A stretch of 64,000 nucleotides of DNA from Tethya wilhelma (lineage: Eukaryota; Porifera; Demospongiae; Tethyida; Tethyidae): positions 48,799 to 112,798 of the forward strand of contig CAXIPT010000053.1 of assembly GCA_964030475.1 (NCBI GenBank). Reading direction: 5' to 3'. Shown here piece by piece: positions 8,062 to 56,360 of this stretch. Made by a program: the position numbers and the translations under genes. The first letter of the stretch is position 1. Each line of letters starts with the position of its first letter. Below the pieces are notes generated by a model, which saw only the letters and a list, made by a program, of their open reading frames with translations, did not search any database and was not told the DNA's origin.

Positions 8062-8474
8062 ACCGTAACCCTCACGTGCTATGCACGCTGAGGGTTAATG
8101 AAAGACAAAAAAAAACGTTTAATACATCAAGAGGTCATAGGTCTATACACTAAATGACATAAAACATATTGAACTACAGTAAATTGTGAAAAATCACTAA
8201 GCTCATAATATTATAGCCTGGCTGCTGGTATATGATCTATGTTCTGTGCTGTATACTATTGTTATATTTGTTGCGGTTACACTCTGAGCACAATTAAGGT
8301 GGGAGGTACGGATGAAACGCGAGGGGGTCTTTTCTTGAGACGAATGGGAAGGTCTTGGATGTGAGAATCTCTGTCTGTCGTGTCAGACCGTGTAGACCTT
8401 TCTAGCAGGAGCTATTCACTTTCGCGATCCTTCCCGGGAAATCGAAAAGCATCACGTGACAGCAGTCATCGCAG

Positions 8475-9891
8475 CACGGGCGTTTTGCGTCGGCCACTTA
8501 GTTGCTAAATTAGAACATTACGGTAAGCCTAATTAATATTCATAGCACTTGGCAACGCAAACTAATTACCACATCAAGTGGTTGCTATATATACATTGGG
8601 AATTCTAGCCCCATATACAGTCAAAAACTGTTCTAAACATAGTAGACAGAACATATACTACGTAATAAGTGCTAACACGCAACAATAGCGTGAGAACTAC
8701 ACAACTGAGCATACTGAACAAACACACGGGTGGTACTCAAGTATTCAGTAACACCTCCCTACAAACATTATTTTTGTGCTTCCTAAAGTTTTCTGTGACA
8801 GACAAGCAACATTCATAGATAACATTCATGTGGATTGGCACACACAATATATGTAAATCTAGTGCCTATTTTTTCTAACAGAATTATAAGTGTTCTAAAA
8901 ATGACGAATATTTAGCAAAAAATAAGTTAATGTTTGACACTTTTAACAATTCTGAGTGGTACTGGATGGTGAAAACAACATAAAGAGAAGAAAAGAACCT
9001 TTACTCATCATTTGACATCAGTGACAGCACATAGCTAGGTTGGTAGAGTGGTCTTCTATGATACAAGTACTGTGACAGCCGGGGTGGGCTCTGGCGGACT
9101 TGTTGCTGGTATATTGCTCCTAGCAGTGGTTTTTCAACAGTTGTGACATGTCCTTGTAGGCTTCTTTACAGTATTTCAGAGTAAACTAGGTTGGATAAGT
9201 AAATAGAAGTAAATAAATAAGTGTGTACACAAAGAAATGTGCCGGTACACAACAATTTGAATATGCATAGTGATATATAGTACACAAAATATACTTTCCC
9301 CCAAAATGGACTAAAATTATAGTTGTACAATAGCTGATAGACACAAGTTCTCTCTCTACATGTATATTTGCTTCATACTGACCAAAAACAAGTCTTTTCT
9401 CAGAATAACTGCAACATTGCATCAATTTAGGCTTCACAGTATGATAATTAACTAATAATGCATGAAATTCACACACACAAAACGCTAAGAAAAAAAATAG
9501 GCACCGAAGAAAGTGTAGCTTACTGTAAACTTCAGTCCAAGAAGAGGTGAGAAAACAGTCCAGTTTCCCTGGGAAAACTCCTACTTCAGAAATACATTCT
9601 TTCAAACAGAGAGGGTTCCAAGAAGGTTGGTCAACTTCTTTGACTGTATCTCAGCTCCAGTAGGTGCTATGAAGCTCAAACAAGGACGAAAAGCTTCAGC
9701 AAAAACAAGCGCTTTCAGCCATGTTTACTGCTTCCACGTGGTTTTAACAGTATTCATAGAGCGCACGTGTAAAGCTGGGCAAGCTGTTGCTATGGGCCAG
9801 CAGGAAGCGTTGCTATGGGGGTGTACGTGAAATTTAATATTTCGCGGGCGAACTAAGTGTGTGCAAAACCATACGGGAAAAAACGCCCGTG
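8475..9891 (-). mobile_element. 1,417-bp DNA transposon T1 (copy 1), CACGGGCG termini, 4-bp TSD
   Basis: Ends are CACGGGCGTTTTGCG on the left and AAAAAACGCCCGTG on the right, giving an inverted repeat of about 12 bp. It is flanked by GCAG on both sides (4-bp TSD). The inverted copy at 54894-56310 has the same length of exactly 1,417 bp, and the parts I compared are identical, implying recent movement. CAC-starting termini with a 4-bp TSD fit the Chapaev/CMC type (family knowledge; assignment is inference). Inside are open frames of 139 codons (9605-9186, minus) and 67 codons (9627-9830, plus). Neither resembles a transposase, so it is probably non-autonomous. Confidence 0.85.
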
Positions 9892-9895
9892 GCAG

Positions 9896-11579: not shown

Positions 11580-13298
11580 TTGGATACTTGAGCCTTGAGG
11601 ACACCAGCTATCAACAGCTTTGACCTTGTCGTGACTGGACATGTTTTTTCCGTGATAACTCCAGCTGCTTATTCCTCTCTCTCTCAAGCCAATAGCTAGT
11701 GGTGCCACATCTTTAACAAAATCAGTATAGACAATTGCTCTTTTGTCACCAATTGTCTGTACTAAATGATGGGCGAGTTTTGAGTAGTATGGTGGAGTTC
11801 CTATAAATGCACACACATGCTTAGGCTTCTCAACATTCCTTCTCTCTCCATCCGCAGGCAATACCTAAAGCTCACAACCATGTACAATATTGTTCACAAT
11901 GCAATGTACTTCCCTTCTGGTGCCTTTGTAGCGGATCAATCCGAATATAATAGTCACTTACGTAATTATGTACATAATACTCATAGATTTAATAGACCCT
12001 TTGCCCATAGTAATTACCTATTGTCATCTTTTGTACCTAACGTAGTCACTACATGGAATAATTTACCAGACTCAGTTGTGTCTTCTGATACTATTTCTAC
12101 CTTTAAACATTTACTTCTGTGTCATCTTTCAGAAGACATATGAACAAATTAGCATTTTAATTTTTTCTTAGACACATGTTTTAGATTAGCATTGTGTTGT
12201 GCTACTCATGTTGTCTTTTGTCATTAGACATAAATTTTCATAAAGAAAAAAAAAAAAAAAAAAAAAAATGTAAATTGCATGCATAGCATTGGAGAATACG
12301 TGTTTGAACAAACCATTTTTTGGAAATTGTTGTAGCTCAACTGCATGAAATGAGATATTGGGCTTGTTAACTGTTGAGATAGCCAACTCTGGATCTCTTA
12401 GCATACTTGACAATTGGTCACGAACGGAAGGTGTCGCTGTTGCCGTCAACGCCATGAGAGGGACATTTGGAAAATGAGAAAACCTTCTTGGGGGTGCTTG
12501 TGTTCTTCTCGTAAAACGACTCAGGAGTACAGTACACTAATCTGAAGCCTCCCCCTTCAAGCTGCGTCAGAACATCAGCCTTTTGAGCCGATCCAAGAAA
12601 AGTGGCTGGTATTTTGTACTTGGTGAGCTTGCTTACTTGGTCGGTCATCAGGCTGATTGTGGGTGAAATCACAACTGTGGTTCTCATATCATGAAGGCTT
12701 GGGATGGTAAAGCATAGACTTTTCCCACAACCAGTTGGCTGAACCACAAGACTATCTCTTTGCTCTAGAGATGCTCTAATGACAGAGAGTTGCCACGGAT
12801 GCAGAGAAGAAATCCCGAACTTCTGGGCTGCAAGACCACAGATGATCATGTCCGTTTGATGAGGTACTTGTTGAGATTCTGTGGTAAAATATACATGTAC
12901 TATCACCTATTACCTTGGAGATAGCAAAGTCTTACTAGAGTACTTACAAAAACAATTAGAATATTTACCCTCTGTATCGTACGAAATACAAACTTGTGAG
13001 AGGAATTACACAATTACATTATCAGTAGATATGCAGCACCATAGTTTAACAACTAGCACATCAAATGCATACCATTTTTGGCTGGTGTTTTCTTGAGTGT
13101 TCTCACTGAGTGGTTCTTCCTCTTAGAGTGCTTGTGTCGTAAGTTGGAACACTGACTACAATAGTATGTAGCACACTCCTCACAAAATACAGCTGCTGGG
13201 TCACTACAATTTTCACACTCCTCACATTCTGGTGGTTCAGTTTCTAAATCAGTACTCTCCATCTCATAATCCATCTTAATATCATTTTTAATCTCCAT
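11580..13298 (-). pseudogene. B-box / RecQ-like helicase gene, DEAH region deleted, 3' end missing
   Basis: Three minus-strand exons join in phase: 13298-13073, 12878-12314 and 11800-11580, all with GT/AG borders. Exon 1 encodes a B-box-type zinc finger (CEECENCSDPAAVFCEEC, then CSQC and HKHSKRKNH). Exon 2 encodes the RecQ N-terminal half: WQLSVIRASLEQRDSLVVQP, Walker A TGCGKS, and motif Ia VVISPTISLMTDQV. It then breaks after TPESFYEKN and resumes one frame over at HFPNVPLMALTATATP. The roughly 40 residues that should hold motif II (DEAH) are gone, with a frameshift. Exon 3 gives the start of helicase domain 2 (AIVYTDFVKDV, YHGKNMS). RecQ helicases unwind DNA 3' to 5' using ATP; without motif II this copy should be inactive. 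A B-box joined to RecQ is unusual. The gene ends at a (CA)n intron and the N at 11518. Confidence 0.8.
11803..12268 (+). mobile_element. 5'-truncated LINE (non-LTR retrotransposon) 3' end
   Basis: A plus-strand frame from 11817 to a stop at 12143 encodes a typical C-terminal tail of LINE reverse transcriptases: IPSLSIRRQYLKLTTMYNIV, then SSFVPNVVTTWNNLPDSVV and a final leucine-rich helix. It is followed by a short 3' UTR and a 23-25 base poly(A) run at about 12246-12268. It lies antisense inside the second intron of the RecQ-like gene. The catalytic reverse-transcriptase core is absent, so it is a dead 5'-truncated copy. A target-site duplication was not clear. Confidence 0.8.
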
Positions 13299-14240: not shown

Positions 14241-14805
14241 TCAAAACCATTTGACAACAGCTGACAACATACTGCTCATAGCTCTTTGTGACTTGCGCTG
14301 CCACTTAATCAGAGGCTATATGTGGGTTATCTTGGACTGGGTAAATAAGTGAGCCTTGATACACTTAGACATATACTTTTGGACTATCTGGTAAGTGTGA
14401 CGACACACGTGCAGCATTGGTACCTTTATTTTTACATGCAAAAATTCCTGAATATACAGTGTAAATACAACGGATGATTCAATTCACCAGACCTAGCCGT
14501 GATAAGAAATCTAGGCTTAGTCAAACGCTCTAACCACTGATGATAGCAAAAGATGAGAACAGCCTGGTGGTAAACAACTGCTTCACAATGGCAAAGAGAA
14601 ACAGGAGAAAGTAATACAAGGCAATTTAAGGTAGCACAGCATACAAAGGTGCTTCTTTATTTATCACTGAAATATAGGGGGAAAAGGTCCTTGAAAATAG
14701 TATTAAGCAAATACCAAAGCTAGTTTCTAAATATTGCACATCTAAATACACTTTGGTATCTGCATGCATACCGTAAATCGGGAAATTTTCGCTGTTATAA
14801 ATTTT
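14240..14805. repeat. Repeat R1, copy 2, with truncated CCGTA MITE
   Basis: Matches 25163-26100 and 26820-27160. At its right end a CCGTA-family MITE starts (CCGTAAATCGGGAAATTTTC at 14771) and is broken off at about 14806, marking an insertion or deletion border next to the transposase-protease gene. Confidence 0.7.
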
Positions 14806-14985
14806 TCATTGGGAAATGTTCAACAACGATAGTAAAATCTGTTTTTTGCATTCATAAATACAAGTTACTAATATTACTCTCACTTTTGTTTCAGACTGAT
14901 CCATATCTTTGTCTCCAGGATCAACTCCTTCGGATCCTCAATGTGGACATCTTCTGTGCATATAGAAGGGAAAAACAGTTATCAA

Positions 14986-15022
<37 letters not shown>

Positions 15023-15324
15023 TTTGCTAAGAGAAGCAATAATGCTAGTGATGTAATGGTGGGAGAGGAACAAAAATAGTAACCCACAAACACTTGACAT
15101 TTTTTTGCAATCAGAGCAGTTTGGGGTTGCAGAATAAGGTTGTAAGTCACTAAATTTAGACTACATGCAGTAATGGTGACATAATGTGAAAAACAGCATA
15201 TAAAAGTGAGCACAGAATCTAGCTACATAGACACAAGTTTTCAAGACTAAAGGAGTATTCACAAGTGTCACCTGTTTTACTTAACTACACCCAAAGGTTT
15301 TCAATCTGCTACTCTACCTGCTTC
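14806..15324. other. 5' flank of the transposase-protease gene; (GT)n
   Basis: No gene. Contains a (GT)n tract at 14989-15018. This stretch should include the promoter of the downstream gene; I saw no convincing TATA box or terminal inverted repeat. Confidence 0.4.
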
Positions 15325-15367
15325 ATGGAGGTATGTCAGTGCATCTAATATAATATTATATACACTA

Positions 15368-18300
15368 ATGATTATGATTGGTAATAACAACTCAATCATA
15401 CAGGAATCAGAAGGGCTATCAGACTCACACCTCGACAGTGATCACCAATCACAGTCCAGTGAGCTAGAGGAATCAGAAGGGCTATCAGACTCACACCTCG
15501 ACAGTGATCACCAATCACAGTCCAGTGAGCTAGAGGAATCAGAAGGGCTATCAGACTCACACCTCGACAGTGATCACCAATCACAGTCCAGTGAGCTAGA
15601 AGAAACAGAAGGGCTATCAGACCCACACCTCGACAGTGATCACCAATCACAGTCCAGTGAGCTAGAAGAAACAGAAGGGCTATCAGACCCACACCTCGAC
15701 AGTGATCATCACCTTGACAGTGATCATCAATCACAGTCCAGTGAACTGGTGAAGGAGAGCATATACACTACACCTCCTCCAGAGAAGAGACTGTGCTTGC
15801 GAGAGAAAAGAGCTGTCAGATACACCCAGGTAAACCCGAGACCTATGAACTAAGAGTAGCACCTTCATGTACACAAAAATGTGTTCTGTTATGCAGACTC
15901 CACAGTTGGACACCTCTCTTTCCACCATACAATCTGACAAAGAGTCGGAGTATTTTCTTACGCCAAAGGACGTCCCAGAGTGCCAGGAGATCAACAAACA
16001 AACACTGTGTTTTTTGGACTTCCGACAGCTTCAGCTTTTTCTTCAACAAATCAATATCAGCAGAGCATGTACGACTCCCGGCTGCAGGGGAAACCTGGTG
16101 GCAGTTTCTGTCAAACTCAAGGGATATGGAGGAGCGGCAAGGATAAGATACCTCTGTGACGGATGCGAGGAGCAAGAAGTCATCTTGGAGACTTACAAGA
16201 TGGATGGAAGATCCTGCGAGATCAGCCGTGCATTGCACATTGCCTTCATTATTGGTGGAGCCACGTATGCAACTTACGTGAGAGTCTTGAGGCACTCTCT
16301 GGGAATACAGACCAGTGGAAACAACCAGTTTCAGCACACCATAGAATTCATGTACCCCTTTGTCAAGGACATGGTGGACGAGATGTGTACAGAAGCCATG
16401 GAAGAAATGAAACAAAAGGAGAAGAGTGAGCTAGGGTCGTGGAGCAGAGCCGTCACCACCGCTGACGGGGCTTGGATGACCAGAGGACACTACAGCAAAA
16501 ACTTCACCTATAGCATCCGAAATTACTTTACTGGAGCTCTTCTCTTCCGAAAGCACCTCTGCCAGAGAGGGTCTGACACAATCATCAAAGAGCCCCTCTA
16601 CCAGGGCACATCCAAGGCAGCAGAGGGTTATGCAGCCAAGCTACTGTTTTCCGAGGCCAAGGCATTGGGGATGAATTTAGAAATAAATTGGCAAGATCAA
16701 GACTCCTCTTCCAGCAAAGTTATCAAAGAGGTCTTTCCCAAAGCTCAAATAATGCTATGTGGTGGCCACGCTGGGAGATCCCATCTAAAACAGCTGGAGA
16801 CTTGGGCAAAGAGGAAAAAATTTAGCAGTAAGCTGATAAAGACGCACAAAGAATCATTTCCAGCAGTCGAGAAAAACCCCACTTGCCACTGCATAAAGAA
16901 GCACTCACCGGGCTGTGGCTGTTTGTCGGAAAAATTCATCACAAGATCTCGAAATAACTTTTCCATGATACTCTCCAGCTCCAACACTGCACTTGAATTC
17001 GCACAGAGATTACGTAGCTTGTACCATCATGCAATCGACGAGCACGAGTGGGAGGATGGGAAGTGTGACTTCCACTCGATCACGGTGTGCAGCTGTGGAA
17101 AATGTGAAGACAAAGCCGAACATGAGTGCCCGGGAAAGGATTATCACACTCGCTCTAAGCTGACTTGCCCATTCCACAAGCTGGCCTACAGGATAGAAAT
17201 TGAACGTAGGGCTGGTATGGCAGACTCCATTGTCCATCCCGAACTCAAGAGGGGGCATTCTAATTTCCTGGAAGCATCTCATAATGTGTTGATCAGGTTC
17301 AGAAGTAAACACATACAACTGGAGCGGCTACACTACCACCTCTCTACAGATCTGGGTCTACTGCAGGCCAATATCACCTACAAGAGCAGAAAGGAAGGAC
17401 CAGAGTACAACTGGATCCCAGAGCTGTATAGAAAGATGAAGCTGCCAGTTTTTGAGGGCATAGAGGAGGCGCTACAACGCTATGGAAAGCGAAGAGACAA
17501 GCACCTGAAGCACAAAAAGGAAGAGAAACAAAAGAAGAGGAGAATACAGCTGAAGATCGACAGAACACAAGAGCAGCAAGAACGAGGAAAATGGAGCAAG
17601 AAACACGGAGACGACCAGTATGGGGAGAGCAGTAGCAAGGCTGAATCCAAACCGAATTCCAGTGGAAAGAAGTGCAAGTGTGGCTCCACCACCCACCTGA
17701 GGACAACAGCAAAGAGCTGTCCTCTGAACAAAAAGTTACAGATCTTAAGCGACACTGAAAGTGGCGATGGTGATCCCACTACAGAGAAGCCAAGCAGGTT
17801 TGTGCACACTTAATATACGACCTCTGCTCTAATATAATTATAGGAGCATTAATTACATAATGACCTAAATACTTAAACGTCTCTTACTCACATCACATCA
17901 CAATGCAGATCAGGAGACGACAGTGAAAACGAACCAGTCAACAACAAAAAGAAGTGCAAGTGTGGCTCAACAACACATAGTAGGACGTCTTCCAAGAGCT
18001 GCCCACTCAACAAGTGCAAAGACACATACGACAAGTCCAAAGACACAGGTGTGAGAATGTTTGATGACAGCAAGTCTAGCGGGTGAGTAAACTCATATCA
18101 CAGCATCCAATAAAAAAAAGAACAAGCAAAACTTCCAATTTAATTATGAATCTTTCATTGTGCAGTTCATCTGAGTGTGGTAACAATACAGATGACGACC
18201 AGATCATCGACATCAATACGCTTGATGATGAACTACTCCAGGAGGAAGAGGATGAGACCTGTAACTGCGGGTTGGCAAAGGCCCACAGGATAGACTGCCC

Positions 18301-19435
18301 CATGAACACCAGAAACATTTACGGGAGAAGGTTGTTTTCAAAGCATGCCACATTTAAACCTGGGGATCTTGCGCTACTTCACATTTCTAGGATGTCAGGA
18401 AAACACCTTGTTTGTAGAGTTGTACAGGTCAACAACAAACGATACACCGTCCACTCAAAGAGAGGCACGCTTTCAGAAAGATTCACAGCAGACCAGCTAA
18501 GCCACTGCAAAGAACCAGGACACAACCTTCCCATCGACAAGTGGCGGCAGAGTGACATTGTCTCAGTGAAAGATCTAAAAGATGAAGATGTCGTTGAGTG
18601 CAGTTGCAGAATCATTCAACCTCATCGTGTGTTGGTGAGTGATGACGACAGTGACTCAAGCCAAGACACAGCCAGCAGACAGGCTATACAAAACCCTCTG
18701 TACAGTCTGTCCACTCGTGATGTGAGTACCATTGTGCGCCCAACAGGATGGCTGAATGACTCCGTAATCACAGCGAGTCAGTTGCTTTTGCTACAGCACT
18801 TTCCACACGTTGAAGGCTTGCAACCTCCGACCCTCCAGCAAGTGCGAGGCTTCCAAGTGCACCGAAGGAAGTTTGTTCAGATCATCAACCTGGATAACAA
18901 CCACTGGTGTGTCGTATCCAATATCTCCTGCAGCCGAGGGGAGGTCAAACTATACGACACAATGTACAACGACATTCAGCCCTCATCTGTGCCCACCATA
19001 GCAAGCCTCATCTTCAACAATCTCCCCACTCTCAGGATTAGCATGATTGATGTCGGCAAGCAATCCAACACTTCAGACTGTGGTGTGCTGGCAGTGGCCA
19101 TCGCCTATGACCTGTGTTCTGGTAAGGATCCGTCCAAAGTCCATTACGACCACCAAGCCATACGGTCACACTTGATTCAGGGACTCACCAAGTGTTCCAT
19201 CGATCGATTTCCAGTACGAGGAACACGCCCAACTCGAGGAGTGACATCCTACCAAGATGTCGAAATTTTCTGTTCCTGTCGAATGCCCGAGTTACCCGAA
19301 GACACAGAGAACGATCCAATGGCTCAGTGTGACGGATGTGATGAGTGGTATCACAAGAGTTGTATGGATATACCAGACAATGTCTTTGACTCCGTGGACG
19401 TCCCTTGGAAATGTAAACTATGCAAAGAGAAGTGA
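15368..19435 (+). CDS. Mutator-like transposase / Ulp1-like protease / PHD finger fusion protein
   Basis: Four exons (15368-15829, 15897-17797, 17909-18082, 18166-19435) join in phase with GT/AG borders to give about 1,268 residues. Order: acidic 22-residue repeats (about 13-122); MULE-like DDE transposase, with DGAW (Asp344), WQDQD (421-423) and CxGH (442-445); a basic coiled segment; three zinc knuckles of type CxCGxxxH...CPxN (about 746, 802 and 877); a C48/Ulp1-like protease with WLND, NNHW (His), YDTMYND (Asp) and KQSNTSDCGV (Gln and Cys, about 1150); and a C-terminal PHD finger (about 1214-1268). MULE transposases cut and paste DNA; Ulp1 proteases remove SUMO; PHD fingers read histone tails. 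An alternative start is ATGGAG at 15325 spliced to 15404. All domains look intact. Terminal inverted repeats of the element were not found, so a host-domesticated gene is possible. Confidence 0.85.
15404..15733 (+). repeat. Coding 66-bp tandem repeat, five units
   Basis: Five 66-bp units, each encoding 22 acidic residues around EGLSDSHLDSDHQSQSSELE. Units 1-3 are almost identical and units 4-5 share changes (E to T, S to P). The last unit has an extra 18-bp HHLDSD duplication. Length is always a multiple of three, keeping the reading frame. Confidence 0.95.
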
Positions 19436-19436
19436 T

Positions 19437-20171
19437 GTATATATATGCTGGTTGTTTATAAATAGTTTGTTTTTTTTAGTTTGCTATTTGCTATGTTACC
19501 CAAATGTAACTCATTTCATTGGCTACATCCATTGAATACTATACTCAATTATTGTTATGACTATGTATATCCTATTGGTGGTTTGCTAGTTTGTTAATGT
19601 AGTTTTTCTTTCTCTTTTTCTTACACCTATACCTGGTTTGTATATTGATAATAATAGAATAGTAGCAGGGAAATTTCACAGAGTTTTAAGTTCAACACAT
19701 GTCTCTCCTCGCACATTCTGCAATTTGATTTTCACAAACAAACTTTGCGATGCCCATACTTAAACATTACAGGGAATTTTGCTGATCTGTCTGTGCACCC
19801 AGGGCCAGTGTTTTTCTCGGCACATGCAAAGACAAAATTTAAGACACCTCTAGAGACAAAACGGTAAAAAGGGTAAACATAAAAACAGTTGATAATCAAG
19901 GTTGAACCTGGGATTACACCAGGGAGAGCTCACTACAGCCTGGGCAGGGAAGGCGGGTTATTCACGGCACCTGAAAAACAAAATTTAAGTCACCTCTAGA
20001 GATGAATTGATGTTCACAACTGCCTGAATGGTCTTGCACGTAAAAATATTAACCTATACTACTTAATTTTAGAGGTTACTAAATTTTGGCCAATAGCACT
20101 ATTACAGATTTTGGTTGGAATAAGTTTCACATTTCTCGTGCTTGGAACCAGAAGTGAATGTATACATACAC
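19437..20171 (+). repeat. 735-bp block, first of an apparently exact pair; contains direct repeat D copy 2
   Basis: From the stop codon of the fusion gene this 735-bp block recurs at 24102-24836 with the same length and no difference in the parts I compared. The second copy starts exactly after an N. It includes direct repeat D and a segment GAACCTGGGATTACACCAGG shared with 14161. Because copy 2 begins at the gap, an assembly artefact or a recent duplication are both possible. Confidence 0.85.
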
Positions 20172-20272
20172 GATAATGTTTGTGCACTCCCATTTATTCT
20201 GCTTCCATCGGTATAACTTATACACGATAATGTTTGTGCACTCCCATTTATTCTGCTTCCATCTTTCTGCAG

Positions 20273-20389: not shown

Positions 20390-21073
20390 GTAGACTTTGT
20401 GACTGGTGTAAGCAATTTACTGGTAGATTGCTCAATTGAGATCAGAGCCTCTTTCTCCTTTAAGAAGGGATGGGCCCCCAATGCACTTTACATGGTGTGC
20501 TTTATTTAGAATTTTGTTTATTTTACTGCTTTGGCAGTGGATTATGTGGTTGAAATTTGAACCTATAGAATAATAAACTATGGTATTGATCATGGCGTTT
20601 ACGACATGAGGATCCATATGCGTGGGATTAAAAGTGAAATAATTACTTTTTTCTGCACTTCCCATTTTACACTTTAGAAATTTTACTACTTATCATTTGA
20701 ATAGTGCATACAATACCAGTCGTATGTATATTTGATTACATTTGTGCAGGTAAATGTATCGAGTGAATTCAGGAGTTTGGCTTAATAATGCAACTTTTAC
20801 CATGTTCATCACTTCAAGGTAGTCTACAGTGAGTTTGCAGTGTATTGTAGATGTGTGAGGTTGTATTTCAGGGTTTCCTTTAGGGGGTGGTGGGGGTGGG
20901 CATTTGCCTCAATCAGTATCAATTTTTAGCTGTACTGTAGCCATCTTGTGTATATAGCATCCTACTCCAGCTCACATAAAAGAGTGATACACATTGATGT
21001 GTGCTACACACATAATGCTCGATTGGTTTTTGCTTTCTGAATCCTTCAAGATTGCAATTCCTCTTGTACTGTT

Positions 21074-21113
<40 letters not shown>

Positions 21114-22200
21114 GAGCTTTGCTGCTAGTTGTGCGTCCTAGTTGAGTGCACTAAGGCTTATGCCTCGTAGGTGTTTTCATTACTCCTGTTCTAGGGCTTA
21201 GTTAGTGTAATGATATTTGCTTTGTCTGGCCTGTAATCCTGGATGGGTTGGATGGATGGATTGGGGCAAAACTATGCACACTTTATTCATGGTTTTGAAA
21301 CCCACAAGTATTTCTAAGCAATAATCTCTATATAAAAGGGCAGTTCTAACTCCCAGAGCAGAGAGGCAACTGAAAATAGTTGATAGTACACATTTTTTGG
21401 AAGCCACTTACTTGGCTGCAATGAAAAGGCACCAAAGTACTTAACCCTTGGTGTCCTAAACTATGTATTTCATTGTTAAATGTTTCAATCTAGCTAGCTC
21501 CCAGTACCTAAACACTGGGTCCAGCAGAGCACACTGCAATGATATGGTTACAGAGTACCAGTACTGAGAAAAGAGTCGGTCTATCACCAATCATTGTTAA
21601 AAACTTGCTTATAACATGCCAAAACAGAATGATTAAGATTAGAATAGTGTTATTCTTTGTTAAATTTAGTCAGCTGACCCTTAGCTCCTTCGGCATGCTC
21701 TTTCAAGTGGAAACTACTAAATAGCACACACTAACCAAAACAGGTGTGCCTAGCAGATCTCTGAAACTACAGGTTTTTGCTGAATACTACTGCAATTTTT
21801 ATTTTACCTTGGTGTGCCGCATTTGAAGACTGGAGCTGTTGTTTTTAAGATATAGTTGGAACAAACACACAGACTGACAGACACACAAAATGACTAAGTA
21901 CTGTAACTCTTGGTATGCATGCTGGTGCCAAGAGTTAATTGTACACACAAAGAGAACATGTTTGCTAAAACAGCATCCTGCCGGTGTGTTTTGATTTGTA
22001 GGTCCTTCCACCTCAATCAGTTTGGTTGCAGTGTAACCTTCCGCACCCTTACTGTACATGATGATGTGGTCTCTGCCTTTGGACACTGATACTTGAAGTG
22101 GTGTAGTGCTCTGTTGTAGTACTTACAGTATAGCTTTTTTGCTGTGGAATCCTCTCGTCATCCACATATATGTGTACCTAGAGTATTCTTCTTTTTTCCT

Positions 22201-22234
<34 letters not shown>

Positions 22235-22237
22235 CAG

Positions 22238-22358
22238 TCATCGTAAAGTGTCTCACAGAGAGGGTCTTCCACTCGTCAGTATGTCCTGGTCATCAAGTGA
22301 AGACAATGGCCCCACCCCTCCGAAGCCTTCTCTCAGATTAAAAACACAACACCAACAA
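22238..22358 (+). other. Putative repeat-borne coding exon X2 (copy B)
   Basis: In-phase counterpart of 5612-5729, bounded by GGCAG and CAA/GTAAGA. Indels relative to copy A are multiples of three. The peptide includes MSWSSSEDNGPTPPKPSLR. Confidence 0.35.
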
Positions 22359-23436
22359 GTAAGATATTGTTTTGGGTTTGAAATTTTCCCCTTTGCTATG
22401 TAATAAATTGCAGCTAAGACTCATGTCACATGACTCTAGGTGGTACAGTGAGTGTACAGTGAGTTTGCAGAGTATTGTAGATGTGCGATGTAGGGTTTCA
22501 GGGTTTCTTTTAGGGGGTGGTGGGGGTGGGCATTTGCCTCGATCAGTATCTGTACTGTAGCCATCTTGTATAGCATCCTACCAAACTCTAGCCCACATAA
22601 GAATGTGATCCACATTGATGTATGCTACACGCATAGTATTGATTGGTTACGGTAGTTGTTTTGTGTGTGTGTGTCTGTCTGTTACTAGATTATCTAAAGA
22701 ATGCCATTCTTTAGATAATCTATGGAAGGTTCTTACGCTCATAAGTCGAGATTATCTAAAAATTTGTTGTGTAGAATCTTGCAAAACGCTGTAGTTTCTG
22801 AGATCTGAGCATTTTGTGGTTCTCTGAGCGTTTTTAGCATCTTAGCCTCAAGACCACACCCATCACATGGAGAGTGCGTTATTTAGAAATACAGCTAGTA
22901 AAGCTTGTAGTGCTAGTGCGGTGTGCATGTGCTAGTTGCTGATATATGTGCTTGGACAGGTAAAAAATAAGCTGATTTAGTGAGATATCAATTTGGTTGT
23001 GTGTTGTTTTGTCCCTCAGCATTTCTGGTTTAGCCATGCCCGTGTATTCAGTTTTGACTAGTATCATTAGTCTGATCCGTCATCACAGTTTTCCCATTCA
23101 CTGACTGAATTTTCTGAATAACTTTGCTGGCCAAAGCTCAGAGCCACTTTATAAATTGTACATGTATGATGGAACTTTAGATGGATTAGGTGGCTGGCCA
23201 GCACTCGGACTTGTATCTGCATTGATGGTTGCTTAGCCTCAGTACTGCCAGATCCGTGACTGTGACATGCGTTTGCATTTTGATTTAATGCGCTGAAGTT
23301 TATGCACCTTTGGTGCTTTCATTCCTTTTGTACTGTTAACCTATGTGTGTTTAATTAATTCCTTCTAGTCAGCATGTGCACATGCAGAGGTACAGTATAC
23401 AGTTGTTGCTAACCAGAAGGTATTGAAATAAAAGTA

Positions 23437-23604
23437 CCGTAGATGGGGAATTTTTACCGCTATAAATTTTCGCTTGTTTAATTTTCGCCACTTCGACCGA
23501 TCCGGTAAAGATCACCATACGTTTTAAATTTTCGGGCGTTTAATTTTTTCCACTCGTGCACGTGACGAAAAATTTATAACGGCGAAAATTTCCCGATTTT
23601 ACGG
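23437..23604. mobile_element. CCGTA-family MITE, copy 3
   Basis: A 168-bp element between TA dinucleotides, starting CCGTAGATGGGGAATTTTTA and ending TTTCCCGATTTTACGG. It is the mirror of the copy at 27123-27290 in the other arm. Confidence 0.8.
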
Positions 23605-24100
23605 TATGCATTTGTTTTGTGGAGATACCAAAGTGTATTTAGATGACTCATGTGCAATATTTAGAAACTAGCTTTGGTATTTGCTTAATACTATTTTCCA
23701 GGACCTTTCCCCCCTATATTTCAGTGATAAACCTGATACACCTTTGTATGCTGTGCTACCTTAAACTGCCTTGTATTACTTCTCTGCCATTGTGAAGCGG
23801 TTGTTTACCACCTATTCTCATGTTTTGCTATGTATTCATCAGAGGTTAGAGCGTGTGACTAAGCCTAGATTTCTAATTATGGCTATACTCTGTCTGAGCT
23901 GAGTTGCCCAACCGGATGAACGTCCACGTGTTGAATTACAAGAATGCGTAGAGCGATAAACAAAGTGCACGTTAGCTCTACGGATGCTCTACGTAAATGT
24001 CACATGATTCAAAGGCGAGAGCTAGCGTTAATTAGAAAGAACGCTAAACGGCTCGCATTGCTTTGTATGGCGAGTTTTGTTTCTCCAAGTTCCCAGAAGA

Positions 24101-24101
24101 N
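24101..24101. other. Ambiguous base / probable assembly join
   Basis: A single N. What follows is the 735-bp block also found directly after the fusion gene's stop codon. What precedes it (23886-24100) includes an open frame ending at the N that matches nothing else I can see. Confidence 0.75.
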
Positions 24102-24836
24102 GTATATATATGCTGGTTGTTTATAAATAGTTTGTTTTTTTTAGTTTGCTATTTGCTATGTTACCCAAATGTAACTCATTTCATTGGCTACATCCATTGA
24201 ATACTATACTCAATTATTGTTATGACTATGTATATCCTATTGGTGGTTTGCTAGTTTGTTAATGTAGTTTTTCTTTCTCTTTTTCTTACACCTATACCTG
24301 GTTTGTATATTGATAATAATAGAATAGTAGCAGGGAAATTTCACAGAGTTTTAAGTTCAACACATGTCTCTCCTCGCACATTCTGCAATTTGATTTTCAC
24401 AAACAAACTTTGCGATGCCCATACTTAAACATTACAGGGAATTTTGCTGATCTGTCTGTGCACCCAGGGCCAGTGTTTTTCTCGGCACATGCAAAGACAA
24501 AATTTAAGACACCTCTAGAGACAAAACGGTAAAAAGGGTAAACATAAAAACAGTTGATAATCAAGGTTGAACCTGGGATTACACCAGGGAGAGCTCACTA
24601 CAGCCTGGGCAGGGAAGGCGGGTTATTCACGGCACCTGAAAAACAAAATTTAAGTCACCTCTAGAGATGAATTGATGTTCACAACTGCCTGAATGGTCTT
24701 GCACGTAAAAATATTAACCTATACTACTTAATTTTAGAGGTTACTAAATTTTGGCCAATAGCACTATTACAGATTTTGGTTGGAATAAGTTTCACATTTC
24801 TCGTGCTTGGAACCAGAAGTGAATGTATACATACAC
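24102..24836 (+). repeat. 735-bp block, second copy
   Basis: Repeats 19437-20171 with the same length. It starts immediately after the N and ends at GTATACATACAC, after which the two loci diverge. Confidence 0.85.
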
Positions 24837-25227
24837 AATTAGGTTTTGTTGAATAACTTTCACGGAAAACCTCTGAACTGGGGAAAACCCCAATAGTTAA
24901 AGTGCCTCGAAAATTAAGCGGTATACGATATATCGTGCATTGTCCAAATTGTAGTGGTTGATAAGTTTTTGCTTCTGAGTTTTAGCTTAAAGGACATGCC
25001 TACTAATCAAGTGTACATTATCTAGAGCTTGTGTTGATGATCAGTGATGCTCACAGCATGATGCTGCTTGGTGCTACAGTCTGCTTATAGTGAATGGTGC
25101 ATGGTGCTTGGCAACCTATAGAGGGGTCGACCGACACGGACACAGGTACACAGTGTGGCACTATATTCAAAACCATTTGACAACAGCTGACAACATACTG
25201 CTCATAGCTGTTTGCGACTTGCACTGC
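24837..25227. other. Spacer of the large inverted repeat; R1 fragment
   Basis: 24837-25162 shows no gene or recognised repeat. 25163-25227 is the start of an R1 copy (CAAAACCATTTGACAACAGC) that is interrupted by the helicase-carrying element and resumes at 25954. Confidence 0.55.
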
Positions 25228-25236
25228 CACAGAGGT

Positions 25237-25944
25237 TAGTCTAGCCCTAGACCCCGCCTCTTTCACCAGTGAAAAATGGGGGTCTAGAAAAACTGGTGCA
25301 CTTCCGCCGTTCTCCGCCAGAAATCGGGCGGCACCAATCAGATCGCTCGCGTCACATGACCAAACCGCAACTATTTAATATTGAAACATTAATAATTAAT
25401 TGATTTCCTAAAGTTGGTGCGCGTTAAATGATGATAAGTAACCGTACAAAAGTTGTCGTGTTCAGTCAGCAAATGTCTACATACAAAGACACTCAAATAG
25501 TGTCTGCTGCTACTGAAGCATCAAGCAGGCTAGGCTACACTCTCAGAGAAAAACAGAAGGACGTTGTTGTTGCATTATGTCGTGGCCGAGATGTCTTTGT
25601 TAGCTTACCAACTGGGTGTGGAAAAAGTCTCTGCTACAGTTGTCTACCATGGACTTATGACATTCTCAGAAGACAGCTCTGGACTCGCCGTACATTTTTC
25701 TTATCGGACAGAGGCGAACGGCAAACAAAACACACTGCCATGTCGATCTCTGCAGCTCGTTGTCTTGTCACGCGCACGCGCAGTACTGCCAGCTCGGAAG
25801 TTAATTAACTTATTAACTTTAATAATTGAATCTGGTCACATGCACGCAAAAGTAATTGCATTCCAGAATTTCGCCGGAAGTGCACCAGTTTTTCTGGACC
25901 CCCATTTTTCACTGGTGAAAGAGGCGGGGTCTAGGGCTAGACTA
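25237..25944. mobile_element. Pack-MULE-like element: 70-bp TIRs, 9-bp TSD, captured helicase fragment
   Basis: Left TIR 25237-25306 begins TAGTCTAGCCCTAGACCCCG. The right TIR 25875-25944 is its reverse complement over 70 bp with one mismatch. Both ends are flanked by CACAGAGGT (25228-25236 and 25945-25953), a 9-bp TSD. Uninterrupted R1 copies at 1440 and 14300 show the empty-site context (CTGCCAC..AGAGGTTATGTGGG). Long TIRs plus a 9-bp TSD are the hallmark of Mutator-like elements. The interior carries no transposase but does carry a RecQ-like helicase segment, the definition of a Pack-MULE. Total length is 708 bp. Confidence 0.85.
25428..25808 (+). pseudogene. Captured RecQ-like helicase fragment
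   Basis: A 126-codon frame inside the Pack-MULE-like element. Residues about 30-75 match the N-terminal part of a RecQ/DEAD helicase: LREKQKDVVVALCRGRDVFV, then SLPTGCGKSLCY (Walker A) and LPWTYDIL. After that the sequence no longer resembles motif Ia, so only the motif 0/I region was captured, or the rest was lost by a deletion. It cannot be a working helicase. It differs clearly from the RecQ-like gene at 11580-13298, so the donor was another gene. Confidence 0.75.
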
Positions 25945-26762: not shown

Positions 26763-27122
26763 CATGTATATATACCTCTGTATACCTCTGCATGTGCACA
26801 TGCTGACTATTATAAATGCAACGGATGATTCAATCCAGCAGACCTAGCCATAATTAGAAATCTAGGCTTAGTCAAATGCTCTAACCTCTGATGAATACAT
26901 ATGTAGCAAAACATGAGAATAGGTGGTAAACAACCGCTTCACAATGGCAGAGAAGTAATAGAAGGCAATTTAAGGTAGCACAGCATACAAAGGTTTATCA
27001 GGCTTATCACTGAAATATAGGGGGGAAAGGTCCTGGAAAATAGTATTAAGCAAATACCAAAGCTAGTTTCTAAATAATGCACATCTAAATACACTTTGGT
27101 ATCTCCATAAAACAAATGCATA

Positions 27123-27290
27123 CCGTAAAATCGGGAAATTTTCGCCGTTATAAATTTTTCGTCACGTGTACGAGTGGTAAAAATTAAACGCCTGAAAATT
27201 TAAAACGTATGGTGATCTTTACCGGATCGGTCGAAGTGGCGAAAATTAAACAAGCGAAAATTTATAGCGGTAAAAATTCCCCATCTACGG
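27123..27290. mobile_element. CCGTA-family MITE, copy 4
   Basis: A 168-bp element flanked by TA, starting CCGTAAAATCGGGAAATTTT and ending AAAAATTCCCCATCTACGG. Mirror of the copy at 23437-23604. Confidence 0.8.
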
Positions 27291-28514
27291 TACTTTTATT
27301 TCAATACCTTGTGGTTAGCAACAACTGTATACCTCTGCATGTGCACATGCTGACTAAAAGGAATTAATTAGGGTAGCAACAAAGCTCAACACACACCCAC
27401 ACACATAGGTTAACAGTACAAGAGGAATGAAAGCACCAAAGGTGCATAAGCTTCAGCGCATTAAATCAAAATGCAAACGCATGTCACAGTCACGGATCTG
27501 GCAGTACTGAGGCTAAGCAACCATCAATGCAGATACAAGTCCGAGTGCTGGCCAGCCACCTAATCCATCTAAAGTTCCATCATACATGTACAATTATATG
27601 GATTTATAAAGTGGCTCTGAGCTTTGGCCAGCAAAGTTATTCAGAAAATTCAGTCAGTGAATGGGAAAACTGTGATGACGGATCAGACTAATGATACTAG
27701 TCAAAACTGAATACACGGGCATGGCTAAACCGGAAATGCTGAGGGACAAAACAACACACAACCAAATTGATATCTCACTAAATCAGCTTAGTTTTTTACC
27801 TGTCCAAGCACAAATATCAGCAACTAGCACATGCACACCGCACTAGCACTACAAGCTTTACTAGCTGTATTTCTAAATAACGCACTCTCCATGTGATGGG
27901 TGTGGTCTTGAGGCTAAGATGCTAAAAAAGGCTCAGAGAACCACAAAATGCTCAGATCTCAGAAACTACAGCGTTTTGCAATATTCTACACAACAAATTT
28001 TTAGATAATCTCGACTTATGAGCGTAAGAACCTTCCATAGATTATCTAAAGAATGGCATTCTTTAGATAATCTAGTAACAGACAGACACACACACACAAA
28101 ACAACTACCGTAACCAATCAATACTATGCGTGTAGCATACATCAATGTGGATCACATTCTTACGTGGGCTAGAGTTTGGTAGGATGCTACACAAGATGGC
28201 TACAGTACAGATACTGATCGAGGCAAATGTCCACCCCACCACCCCCTAAAAGAAACCCTGAAACCCTACATCACACATCTACAATACTCTGCAAACTCAC
28301 TGTACACTCACTGTACCACCTAGAGTCATGTGACATGAGTATTTATTACATAGCAAAGGGGAAAAATTCAAACCCAAAACAATATCTCACTTGTTGGTGT
28401 TGTGTTTTTAATCTGAGAGAAGGCTTCAGAGGGGTGGGGCCATTGTCTTCACTTGATGACCAGGACATACTGACGAGTGGAAGACCCTCTCTGTGAGACA
28501 CTTCACGATGACTG

Positions 28515-28549
<35 letters not shown>

Positions 28550-29641
28550 AAAAAAGAAGAATACTCTAGGTACACATATATGTGGACGACGAGAGGATTC
28601 CACAGCAAAAAAGCTATACTGTAAGTACTACAACAGAGCACTACACCACTTCAAGTATCAGTGTCCAAAGGCAGAGACCACATCATCATGTACAGTAAGG
28701 GTGCGGAAGGTTACACTGCAACCAAACTGATTGAGGTGGAAGGACCTACAAATCAAAACACACCGGCAGGATGCTGTTTTAGCAAACATGTTCTCTTTGT
28801 GTGTACAATTAACTCTTGGCACCAGCATGCATACCAAGAGTTACAGTACTTAGTCATTTTGTGTGTCTGTCAGTCTGTGTGTTTGTTCCAACTATATCTT
28901 AAAAACAACAGCTCCAGTCTTCAAATGCGGCACACCAAGGTAAAATAAAAATTGCAGTAGTATTCAGCAAAAACCTGTAGTTTCAGAGATCTGCTAGGCA
29001 CACCTGTTTTGGTTAGCGTGTGCTATTTAGAATTACAGTAGTTTCCACTTGAAAGAGCATGCCGAAGGAGCTAAGGGTCAGCTGACTAAATTTAACAAAG
29101 AATAACACTATTCTAATCTTAATCATTCTGTTTTGGCATGTTATAAGCAAGTTTTTAACAATGATTGGTGATAGACCGACTCTTTTCTCAGTACTGGTAC
29201 TCTGTAACCATATCATTGCAGTGTGCTCTGCTGGACCCAGTGTTTAGGTACTGGGAGCTAGCTAGATTGAAACATTTAACAATGTAATACATAGTTTAGG
29301 ACACCAAGGGTTAAGTACTTTGGTGCCTTTTCATTGCAGCCAAGTAAGTGGCTTCCAAAAAATGTGTACTATCAACTATTTTCAGTTGCCTCTCTGCTCT
29401 GGGAGTTAGAACTGCCCTTTTATATAGAGATTATTGCTTAGAAATACTTGTGGGTTTCAAAACCATGAATAAAGTGTGCATAGTTTTGCCCCAATCCATC
29501 CATCCAACCCATCCAGGATTACAGGCCAGACAAAGCAAATATCATTACACTAACTAAGCCCTAGAACAGGAGTAATGAAAACACCTACGAGGCATAAGCC
29601 TTAGTGCACTCAACTAGGACGCACAACTAGCAGCAAAGCTC

Positions 29642-29681
<40 letters not shown>

Positions 29682-30680
29682 AACAGTACAAGAGGAATTG
29701 CAATTTTGAAGGATTCAGAAAGCAAAAACCAATCGAGCATTATGTGTGTAGCACACACATAATGTGTATCACTCTTTTACGTGAGCTGGAGTTTGATAGG
29801 ATGCTATAGTACAGCTAAAAATTGATACTGATCGAGGCAAATGCCCACCCCCACCACTGTCTAAAAGAAACCCTGAAATACAGCCTCACACATCTACAAT
29901 ACACTGCAAACTTACTGTAGACTGCCTAGAAGTGATGAACGTGGTAAAAGTTGAATTATTAAGCCAAACTCCTGAATTCACTCGATACATTTACCTGCAC
30001 AAATGTAATCAAATATACATACGACTGGTATTGTATGCACTATTCAAATAATAAGTAGTAAAATTTCTAAAGTGTAAAATGGGAAGTGCAGAAAAAAGTA
30101 ATTACTTCACTTTTAATCCCACACATATGAATCCTCATGTCGTAAACGCCATGATCTATACCATAGTTTATTATTCTATAGGTTCAAATTTCAACCACAT
30201 AATCCGCTGCCAAAGCAGTGAAATAAACAAATTCTAAATAAAGCACACCATGTAAAGATAAACCAGTGCATTGGGAGCCCATCCCTTCTTGAAGAAGAAA
30301 GCTCTGATCTCAATTGGGTAATCTTCCGGTCGTACTGAGTCAGCAGTCTCAAAATTGAGACTACCAATCAGATTGCAGCATTTAAGTTTTCACGTGAAGT
30401 CATGCTTTCATGTGCATGTCTCACGAGACTCAAGAGTTCACAATTATGTCTTAGTGATCAGGGAACTTAAATGTCATACAACAAAACGTCTCAAAGATTG
30501 TAAAGAAGTGTACCTGAATCGCTAGCTTACAAACAAGTTTTACTAGTGAAAAAGTAGACCGTACAAATTAAAGATCTAGTATCGAACATTGATACTCTAA
30601 ATAGACTCTAATACCATGATTGGCTTCCTACACACACACACCAGATTAGAGTTCTGCCCTCTTAGCTGGCTCAGTACATA

Positions 30681-54889: not shown

Positions 54890-54893
54890 TTGC

Positions 54894-56310
54894 CACGGGC
54901 GTTTTTTCCCGTATGGTTTTGCACACACTTAGTTCGCCCGCGAAATATTAAATTTCACGTACACCCCCATAGCAACGCTTCCTGCTGGCCCATAGCAACA
55001 GCTTGCCCAGCTTTACACGTGCGCTCTATGAATACTGTTAAAACCACGTGGAAGCAGTAAACATGGCTGAAAGCGCTTGTTTTTGCTGAAGCTTTTCGTC
55101 CTTGTTTGAGCTTCATAGCACCTACTGGAGCTGAGATACAGTCAAAGAAGTTGACCAACCTTCTTGGAACCCTCTCTGTTTGAAAGAATGTATTTCTGAA
55201 GTAGGAGTTTTCCCAGGGAAACTGGACTGTTTTCTCACCTCTTCTTGGACTGAAGTTTACAGTAAGCTACACTTTCTTCGGTGCCTATTTTTTTTCTTAG
55301 CGTTTTGTGTGTGTGAATTTCATGCATTATTAGTTAATTATCATACTGTGAAGCCTAAATTGATGCAATGTTGCAGTTATTCTGAGAAAAGACTTGTTTT
55401 TGGTCAGTATGAAGCAAATATACATGTAGAGAGAGAACTTGTGTCTATCAGCTATTGTACAACTATAATTTTAGTCCATTTTGGGGGAAAGTATATTTTG
55501 TGTACTATATATCACTATGCATATTCAAATTGTTGTGTACCGGCACATTTCTTTGTGTACACACTTATTTATTTACTTCTATTTACTTATCCAACCTAGT
55601 TTACTCTGAAATACTGTAAAGAAGCCTACAAGGACATGTCACAACTGTTGAAAAACCACTGCTAGGAGCAATATACCAGCAACAAGTCCGCCAGAGCCCA
55701 CCCCGGCTGTCACAGTACTTGTATCATAGAAGACCACTCTACCAACCTAGCTATGTGCTGTCACTGATGTCAAATGATGAGTAAAGGTTCTTTTCTTCTC
55801 TTTATGTTGTTTTCACCATCCAGTACCACTCAGAATTGTTAAAAGTGTCAAACATTAACTTATTTTTTGCTAAATATTCGTCATTTTTAGAACACTTATA
55901 ATTCTGTTAGAAAAAATAGGCACTAGATTTACATATATTGTGTGTGCCAATCCACATGAATGTTATCTATGAATGTTGCTTGTCTGTCACAGAAAACTTT
56001 AGGAAGCACAAAAATAATGTTTGTAGGGAGGTGTTACTGAATACTTGAGTACCACCCGTGTGTTTGTTCAGTATGCTCAGTTGTGTAGTTCTCACGCTAT
56101 TGTTGCGTGTTAGCACTTATTACGTAGTATATGTTCTGTCTACTATGTTTAGAACAGTTTTTGACTGTATATGGGGCTAGAATTCCCAATGTATATATAG
56201 CAACCACTTGATGTGGTAATTAGTTTGCGTTGCCAAGTGCTATGAATATTAATTAGGCTTACCGTAATGTTCTAATTTAGCAACTAAGTGGCCGACGCAA
56301 AACGCCCGTG
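54894..56310 (+). mobile_element. 1,417-bp DNA transposon T1 (copy 2), inverted relative to copy 1
   Basis: Starts CACGGGCGTTTTTTCCCG and ends GCAAAACGCCCGTG, flanked by TTGC on both sides (54890-54893 and 56311-56314). Same length as 8475-9891, and its 139- and 67-codon frames are unchanged. The two copies lie 45 kb apart in opposite orientation with different TSDs, so they arose by separate insertions. Confidence 0.88.
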
Positions 56311-56360
56311 TTGCTAGATTATAGTCACATGACACGCACGAGACTGACTGAGCTCGTACG

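What the first reader, a model, noticed from the sequence alone, without database searches (positions are those of the whole stretch)
15325..19435. Single gene fusing a Mutator-like transposase, three zinc knuckles, a Ulp1 protease and a PHD finger
Four exons splice in phase into about 1,268 residues containing all these domains with key residues kept (DGAW, WQDQD, CxGH; NNHW, YDTMYND, SDCGV; C4HC3 PHD). Plant Kaonashi-type MULEs carry a Ulp1-like gene, but a one-polypeptide transposase-protease-PHD architecture in an animal would be noteworthy. It suggests a transposon that edits SUMO marks and reads chromatin, or a domesticated regulator.
Basis: partly seen in the sequence, partly recalled or inferred. 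Interest (0 to 1): 0.9.

Follow-up and report, generated by a model that had tools for sequence, protein, structure and literature searches.

The report
Sponge jumping gene with built-in protease
The gene is real: a transposon of a sponge-like animal encodes one protein that joins a DNA-moving enzyme to a SUMO-protease-like domain and a histone-reading finger; such fusions were noted before in other animals, but here the same protease-and-finger unit also sits near unrelated transposase types in the same genome.

The parts
15325..15330 (+). Possible exon 1 (ATGGAG); the alternative start without this exon is ATG 15368
   Evidence: GT..AG intron 15331-15403, sites also present in the C9 copy
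15404..15829 (+). Exon 2: 22-aa tandem repeats (66-bp units, 15402-15708, 4.7 copies) and a basic stretch
   Evidence: tandem repeat finder, translation
15897..17797 (+). Exon 3: transposase and first knuckle-like motif
   Evidence: open frame, model and PDB comparison
16449..17294 (+). RNase-H-like DDE region with D334 (16464-16466), D411 (16695-16697), E603 (17271-17273)
17673..17720 (+). Knuckle-like motif 1, C-x-C-x5-H-x8-C
   Evidence: pattern in the joined protein
17909..18082 (+). Exon 4; knuckle-like motif 2 at 17955-18002
18166..19435 (+). Exon 5: short third C/H motif (18260-18298, by eye), barrel, Ulp1, PHD, stop
   Evidence: open frame, model
18347..18508 (+). Small predicted five-strand beta-barrel before Ulp1
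   Evidence: strands at exon-5 residues 68-113 in the model
18668..19204 (+). Ulp1/C48 protease domain, H1082 D1100 Q1135 C1141
19274..19423 (+). PHD finger
   Evidence: PF00628 E 1.8e-7, 31.5 bits against 24
14810..20166 (+). Stretch shared with the C9 copy around the gene (91% for the first 0.8 kb, 97% for the rest); the left edge is sharp, the right edge is disturbed by an inverted duplication
24099..24846 (+). Second copy of the gene's 3' flank (= 19434-20181, 99.5%), without the coding part
   Evidence: self-comparison

Best explanation
The gene is the transposase gene of an animal (sponge-type) DNA transposon family of the Mutator/IS256 kind. The DDE RNase-H part would cut and rejoin transposon DNA. 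Fused behind it are knuckle-like motifs, a small beta-barrel, a Ulp1-type cysteine protease with its H-D-Q-C residues in place, and a PHD finger. Shown: the fusion, its conservation, the predicted folds, several copies. Inferred: mobility (ends not delimited); that the protease removes SUMO or a related tag from host proteins that silence or repair the insertion site; that the PHD ties the complex to a histone mark. About 0.9 for the identity, about 0.4 for the SUMO/chromatin mechanism.
Against: Terminal inverted repeats were not established: best scores 11, 14, 16, 12, 12 for five copies against maxima of 15, 13, 14, 14, 12 in 20 shuffles each, so two copies (C3, C14) lie slightly above their shuffles but with short, unconfirmed pairs. 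No target-site duplication could be read. The window copy does not reach Pfam's Mutator or C48 cut-offs, nor does the 1,575-aa ORF. The C3 copy gave no ATG-initiated ORF of 700 aa or more, and the C14 copy has a stop in its transposase part. In the Ulp1 part of the C53/C9 pair the ratio is 0.60 from 3 synonymous and 6 replacement changes, too few to show selection on the protease. No expression data.
Confidence: 0.78

Rival explanations
1. Domesticated host gene: a former transposase kept as a chromatin or SUMO regulator.
For: Intact frame, introns, Ka/Ks 0.21 against the C9 copy.
Against: Several copies at different places plus fragments with stops, different repeat length between the C53 and C9 copies (exon 2 of 426 and 276 bp), many diverged relatives, some with high member counts. 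Purifying selection is expected of a mobile transposase too.
Confidence: 0.1
2. Two neighbouring genes (transposase and Ulp1-PHD) that the reader joined by mistake.
For: In pogo-type loci of this genome the Ulp1-PHD frame is a separate open frame, three times on the opposite strand of the transposase.
Against: Single uninterrupted 1,575-aa ORF; the first 15 proteins,244 aa, each cover 97-100% of the query.
Confidence: 0.04
3. A transposon protein in which Ulp1 and PHD are passive leftovers of gene capture without a role.
For: Some relatives lack a recognisable C-terminal part; the PHD of the 1,575-aa ORF is not seen by Pfam; few changes in the Ulp1 part of the C53/C9 pair, 6 of 9 replacing.
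Against: H, Q and C invariant and D at 90% or more over 26 rows; H, D, Q, C invariant over eight loci of this genome, six of them near other transposase types.
Confidence: 0.12

Closest known systems
Mutator transposons of hydra and lancelet with Ulp1 (Repbase Reports, cited in PMC2836005)
   Same: Animal Mutator transposon with Ulp1; the Figure 1e legend also names PHD for Ginger1 and Mutator transposases (legend and passages read)
   Different: Figure and Repbase entries not seen, so whether those proteins share the knuckles, the barrel or the PHD of this family is not known to me
Ginger1 transposons (PMC2836005)
   Same: C-terminal Ulp1 or OTU, never both, and Ulp1 with PHD in one family (section 5 read); a similar either-or is seen here
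   Different: Ginger1 uses a Gypsy-type integrase; here the transposase is IS256/Mutator-like
Kaonashi MULEs of plants
   Same: Mutator-type element with a Ulp1-like domain (recalled; search listing only)
   Different: No PF10551 match at this locus; that Kaonashi has no PHD is recalled
IS256-type ISCth4 transposase (6xgx, 6xg8, 6xgw); its IS256 assignment is recalled
   Different: No protease or PHD (recalled)
P0194, a jgi record named zinc finger SWIM domain-containing protein 3
   Same: One 738-aa protein with PF10551, PF21056, PF02902 and PF00628
   Different: A different transposase family; its Ulp1-PHD is 31% identical to the pogo-type query used there

Membership tests
Mutator/IS256 transposases | RNase-H DDE fold of the IS256/Mutator type | tested here: met
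Mutator/IS256 transposases | D, D, E and C/H residues conserved | tested here: met
   Exon-3 residues D190, D267, E459, C288, H291 invariant over 38 rows
Mutator (Pfam PF20700) | Profile over the curated cut-off | tested here: inconclusive
   C9 copy 43.6 and C3 copy 50.6 bits against 26.5; 3 of 38 aligned members match; window copy not
Mutator transposon (element level) | Terminal inverted repeats and about 9-bp target-site duplication | tested here: inconclusive
   Ends not delimited; inverted pairs at or slightly above shuffle level
Ulp1/SENP (C48) proteases | C48 fold with H-D-Q-C | tested here: met
Ulp1/SENP (C48) proteases | Cleavage of SUMO | not testable with these tools
   Needs an enzyme assay; NEDD8 and ubiquitin proteases match the fold too
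PHD finger | Pfam PF00628 over cut-off | tested here: met
   31.5 bits against 24
Ginger1 | Gypsy-type integrase (rve) | tested here: not met
   No rve match in this protein at E up to 1 and 10
Kaonashi/plant-type MULE | PF10551 MULE domain | tested here: not met
   No PF10551 match for this locus

The most novel reading that the evidence does not exclude
Ulp1-PHD is an exchangeable accessory cassette of animal DNA transposons. In this one genome it is fused to a Mutator (PF20700-type) transposase and also lies, on the same strand, behind MULE (PF10551), pogo-like (DDE_1) and integrase-like frames; in the Mutator family it replaces, or was replaced by, an OTU domain. That points to repeated selection on transposons to carry a SUMO/ubiquitin protease.
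Probability: 0.55. Interest if true: 0.72.

Novelty: new member of a known kind. Interest (0 to 1): 0.5.

Why it matters
If the cassette is selected for, transposons of unrelated kinds have converged on removing SUMO or ubiquitin tags, which would make a link between these tags and transposon silencing or repair, proposed in PMC2836005, testable in an animal element with intact copies. It also gives a defined swap, Ulp1-PHD against OTU on related transposases, as a natural experiment.

Tried and rejected
Single-sequence Pfam scans did not show the transposase; the PF20700 profile on other copies and the structure did. Exon 3 against PDB sequences gave 0 matches at E up to 10. Inverted repeats at the ends of five copies were sought without a convincing result; a pairing of the left end (GAAATGTTCAACAACG) with a stretch near 24850-24865 was noticed by eye and dropped, because homology between C9 and the window goes on beyond it. 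That the barrel came from a Ginger1-type integrase rests on four weak hits to one locus, L041 (E 0.0003-0.0014), and is not claimed. The tree of Ulp1-PHD (21 rows) tends to group rows by transposase type, but 5 of 18 inner branches are starred, four rows have long branches and one join is warned of; it does not show the direction of transfer. A fused pogo-Ulp1 protein was not found: of 988 relatives of the pogo-type transposase the 120 listed show neither PF02902 nor PF00628, but candidates were limited to about 719 aa, and the pogo-type Ulp1-PHD gave five proteins, the closest three 349-416 aa without a transposase domain. Ten paper searches gave PMC2836005 as the one relevant to the fusion; PMC12062965, PMC12730594 and PMC9587614 were searched for terms only and held none of them; other listed papers were not opened. 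Repbase and subscription papers are not held. Fetched but not analysed further: L035, L036, L037.

Full report
What is there. The window lies on contig C53 of a 124.6-Mb genome in 204 contigs. The named protein relatives are from the sponges Halichondria panicea and Amphimedon queenslandica, so a sponge is likely; the species was not identified. ATG 15325 needs one more intron (15331-15403); then five exons give 1,258 aa. Both are open and differ only at the N-terminus.

Is the fusion real? A copy on contig C2 (L033:4028-8755) is one uninterrupted ATG-initiated ORF of 1,575 aa. It aligns with the window's exon 3 at 47% over 594 aa and with exon 5 at 34% over 395 aa, to the end of the PHD. Pfam finds three zinc-knuckle stretches there and C48 under its cut-off, and neither PHD nor PF20700. 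Of the 70 proteins the first 15 cover 97-100% of the query at 44-51% identity; many others are shorter. Among 38 aligned members (the window exon and 37 of the 70), 22 match PHD, 18 C48, 10 OTU and 3 PF20700 at E up to 0.01. The C3 copy, by contrast, has no ATG-initiated ORF of 700 aa.

Transposon or host gene? The own genome gives 45 rows with this protein: near-complete copies on C9 (98 and 96% in the two main rows), C3, C14 (one stop) and C2, fragments with stops, and 19 rows at 31-39% identity that match only the Ulp1-PHD end. The C53 and C9 copies differ by 36 synonymous and 29 replacement changes over 1,208 codons, Ka/Ks 0.21; by part: transposase 0.15, Ulp1 0.60 on 9 changes. The two loci differ to the left of a sharp edge at about 14810. 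On the right they share several more kilobases, and the window's version is rearranged by an inverted duplication. No terminal repeats were established: two of five copies have a short inverted pair slightly above 20 shuffles. I read this as a transposon family with a recently duplicated, intact pair whose ends I could not delimit; a segmental duplication of the C53/C9 stretch is not excluded.

OTU against Ulp1. A tree of the transposase part (38 rows, quick method, weak root) puts the window with P0001 and P0003, then P0002, in starred sets and needs one change between OTU and Ulp1-PHD among 29 labelled rows. Nine rows without a match to my Ulp1-PHD pattern were left out of that count, three of which (P0010, P0014, P0019) fall inside the Ulp1-PHD group; P0058 and P0060 were counted as OTU though one search lists no OTU for them. 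The group of 24 rows (19 Ulp1-PHD, 5 unlabelled) has SH-aLRT 100.

The cassette elsewhere. Eight Ulp1-PHD segments of this genome were aligned: the window and L034 (same family), L038 behind a MULE, L040, L041 and L045 behind integrase-like frames, L042 and L046 behind pogo-like frames. They are 32-34% identical to the window (L034 56%) and keep H, D, Q, C. Pfam supports MULE for L038, DDE_1 with HTH_psq for L042 and L046, and rve just under cut-off for L041; L040 and L045 have no rve match and are called integrase-like by eye. For a count, 81 rows (63 of 130, 18 of 133) merged into 72 places. Of these, 14 have a DDE_1, MULE or PF20700 hit within 8 kb upstream on the same strand (10, 2, 2; the last two are copies of the window's family), 3 have a convergent DDE_1 at 0.8-1.4 kb, 2 of the 14 also have a MULE downstream on the same strand, none has one upstream on the opposite strand, and 55 have none. 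The 55 include the window gene itself and the integrase-like loci, because the window copy is not in the PF20700 list and integrases were left out. The transposase lists were capped by the tool and typed in part (94 of 105 MULE rows, 26 of 41 PF20700 rows, about 140 of 150 DDE_1 rows). No significance is claimed. Whether Ulp1-PHD is fused to the transposase in these other loci is not shown; the convergent cases are separate frames. P0194, from another source, carries PF10551, PF02902 and PF00628 in one 738-aa protein.

Known or new. PMC2836005 (abstract, section 5 and passages read) reports Ginger1 transposases with OTU or Ulp1 but not both and one with Ulp1 and PHD, states Ulp1 for Mutator elements of hydra and lancelet, names an alignment of Ulp1 and PHD of Ginger1 and Mutator transposases in the Figure 1e legend, and proposes a role of these proteases in transposition. 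So the architecture is a new member of a known kind. That pogo-type and MULE-type frames share the same Ulp1-PHD in one animal genome was not found in my ten paper searches, which cover open-licence papers only.

Mechanism. Most likely the DDE part moves the element, as in IS256/Mutator, and the C-terminal unit acts on host proteins at the site: the protease removing SUMO or a relative from silencing or repair factors, the PHD holding the complex on a histone mark. The PDB chains closest to the PHD include SHORT LIFE, EBS, SPP1 and PHF2, which by recall bind methylated H3K4; the finger's own specificity is untested.

Noticed in passing
window 25237-25944: A 708-bp insertion with 73-bp terminal inverted repeats (97%) and a 9-bp target-site duplication; the C9 locus shows the empty site. 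It holds a frame with a weak DEAD-helicase match (E 3.9e-5, under cut-off). Paired copies of the repeat occur elsewhere in the genome. A 9-bp duplication fits a Mutator-type non-autonomous element.
   Followed up: partly
window 20419-23885 and 26845-30330: A 3.5-kb inverted repeat, 95% identical, also present on C9 and in more diverged pieces between 1587 and 6958.
   Followed up: partly
window 8471-9894 and 54891-56314: A 1.4-kb inverted repeat, 99.93% identical, 45 kb apart.
   Followed up: no
window 14767-14807: About 41 bp that match many places in the genome, several of them as inverted pairs about 150 bp apart: probably the end of a small MITE abutting the left edge of the shared stretch.
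   Followed up: no
window 12418-12903 (-): Helicase fragment, Pfam DEAD E 4.9e-15; RecQ-like by eye.
   Followed up: no
own genome C1:11505565, C1:12258725, C27:73862: Ulp1-PHD frames convergent with a DDE_1 transposase 0.8-1.4 kb away, a second arrangement beside the same-strand one.
   Followed up: no
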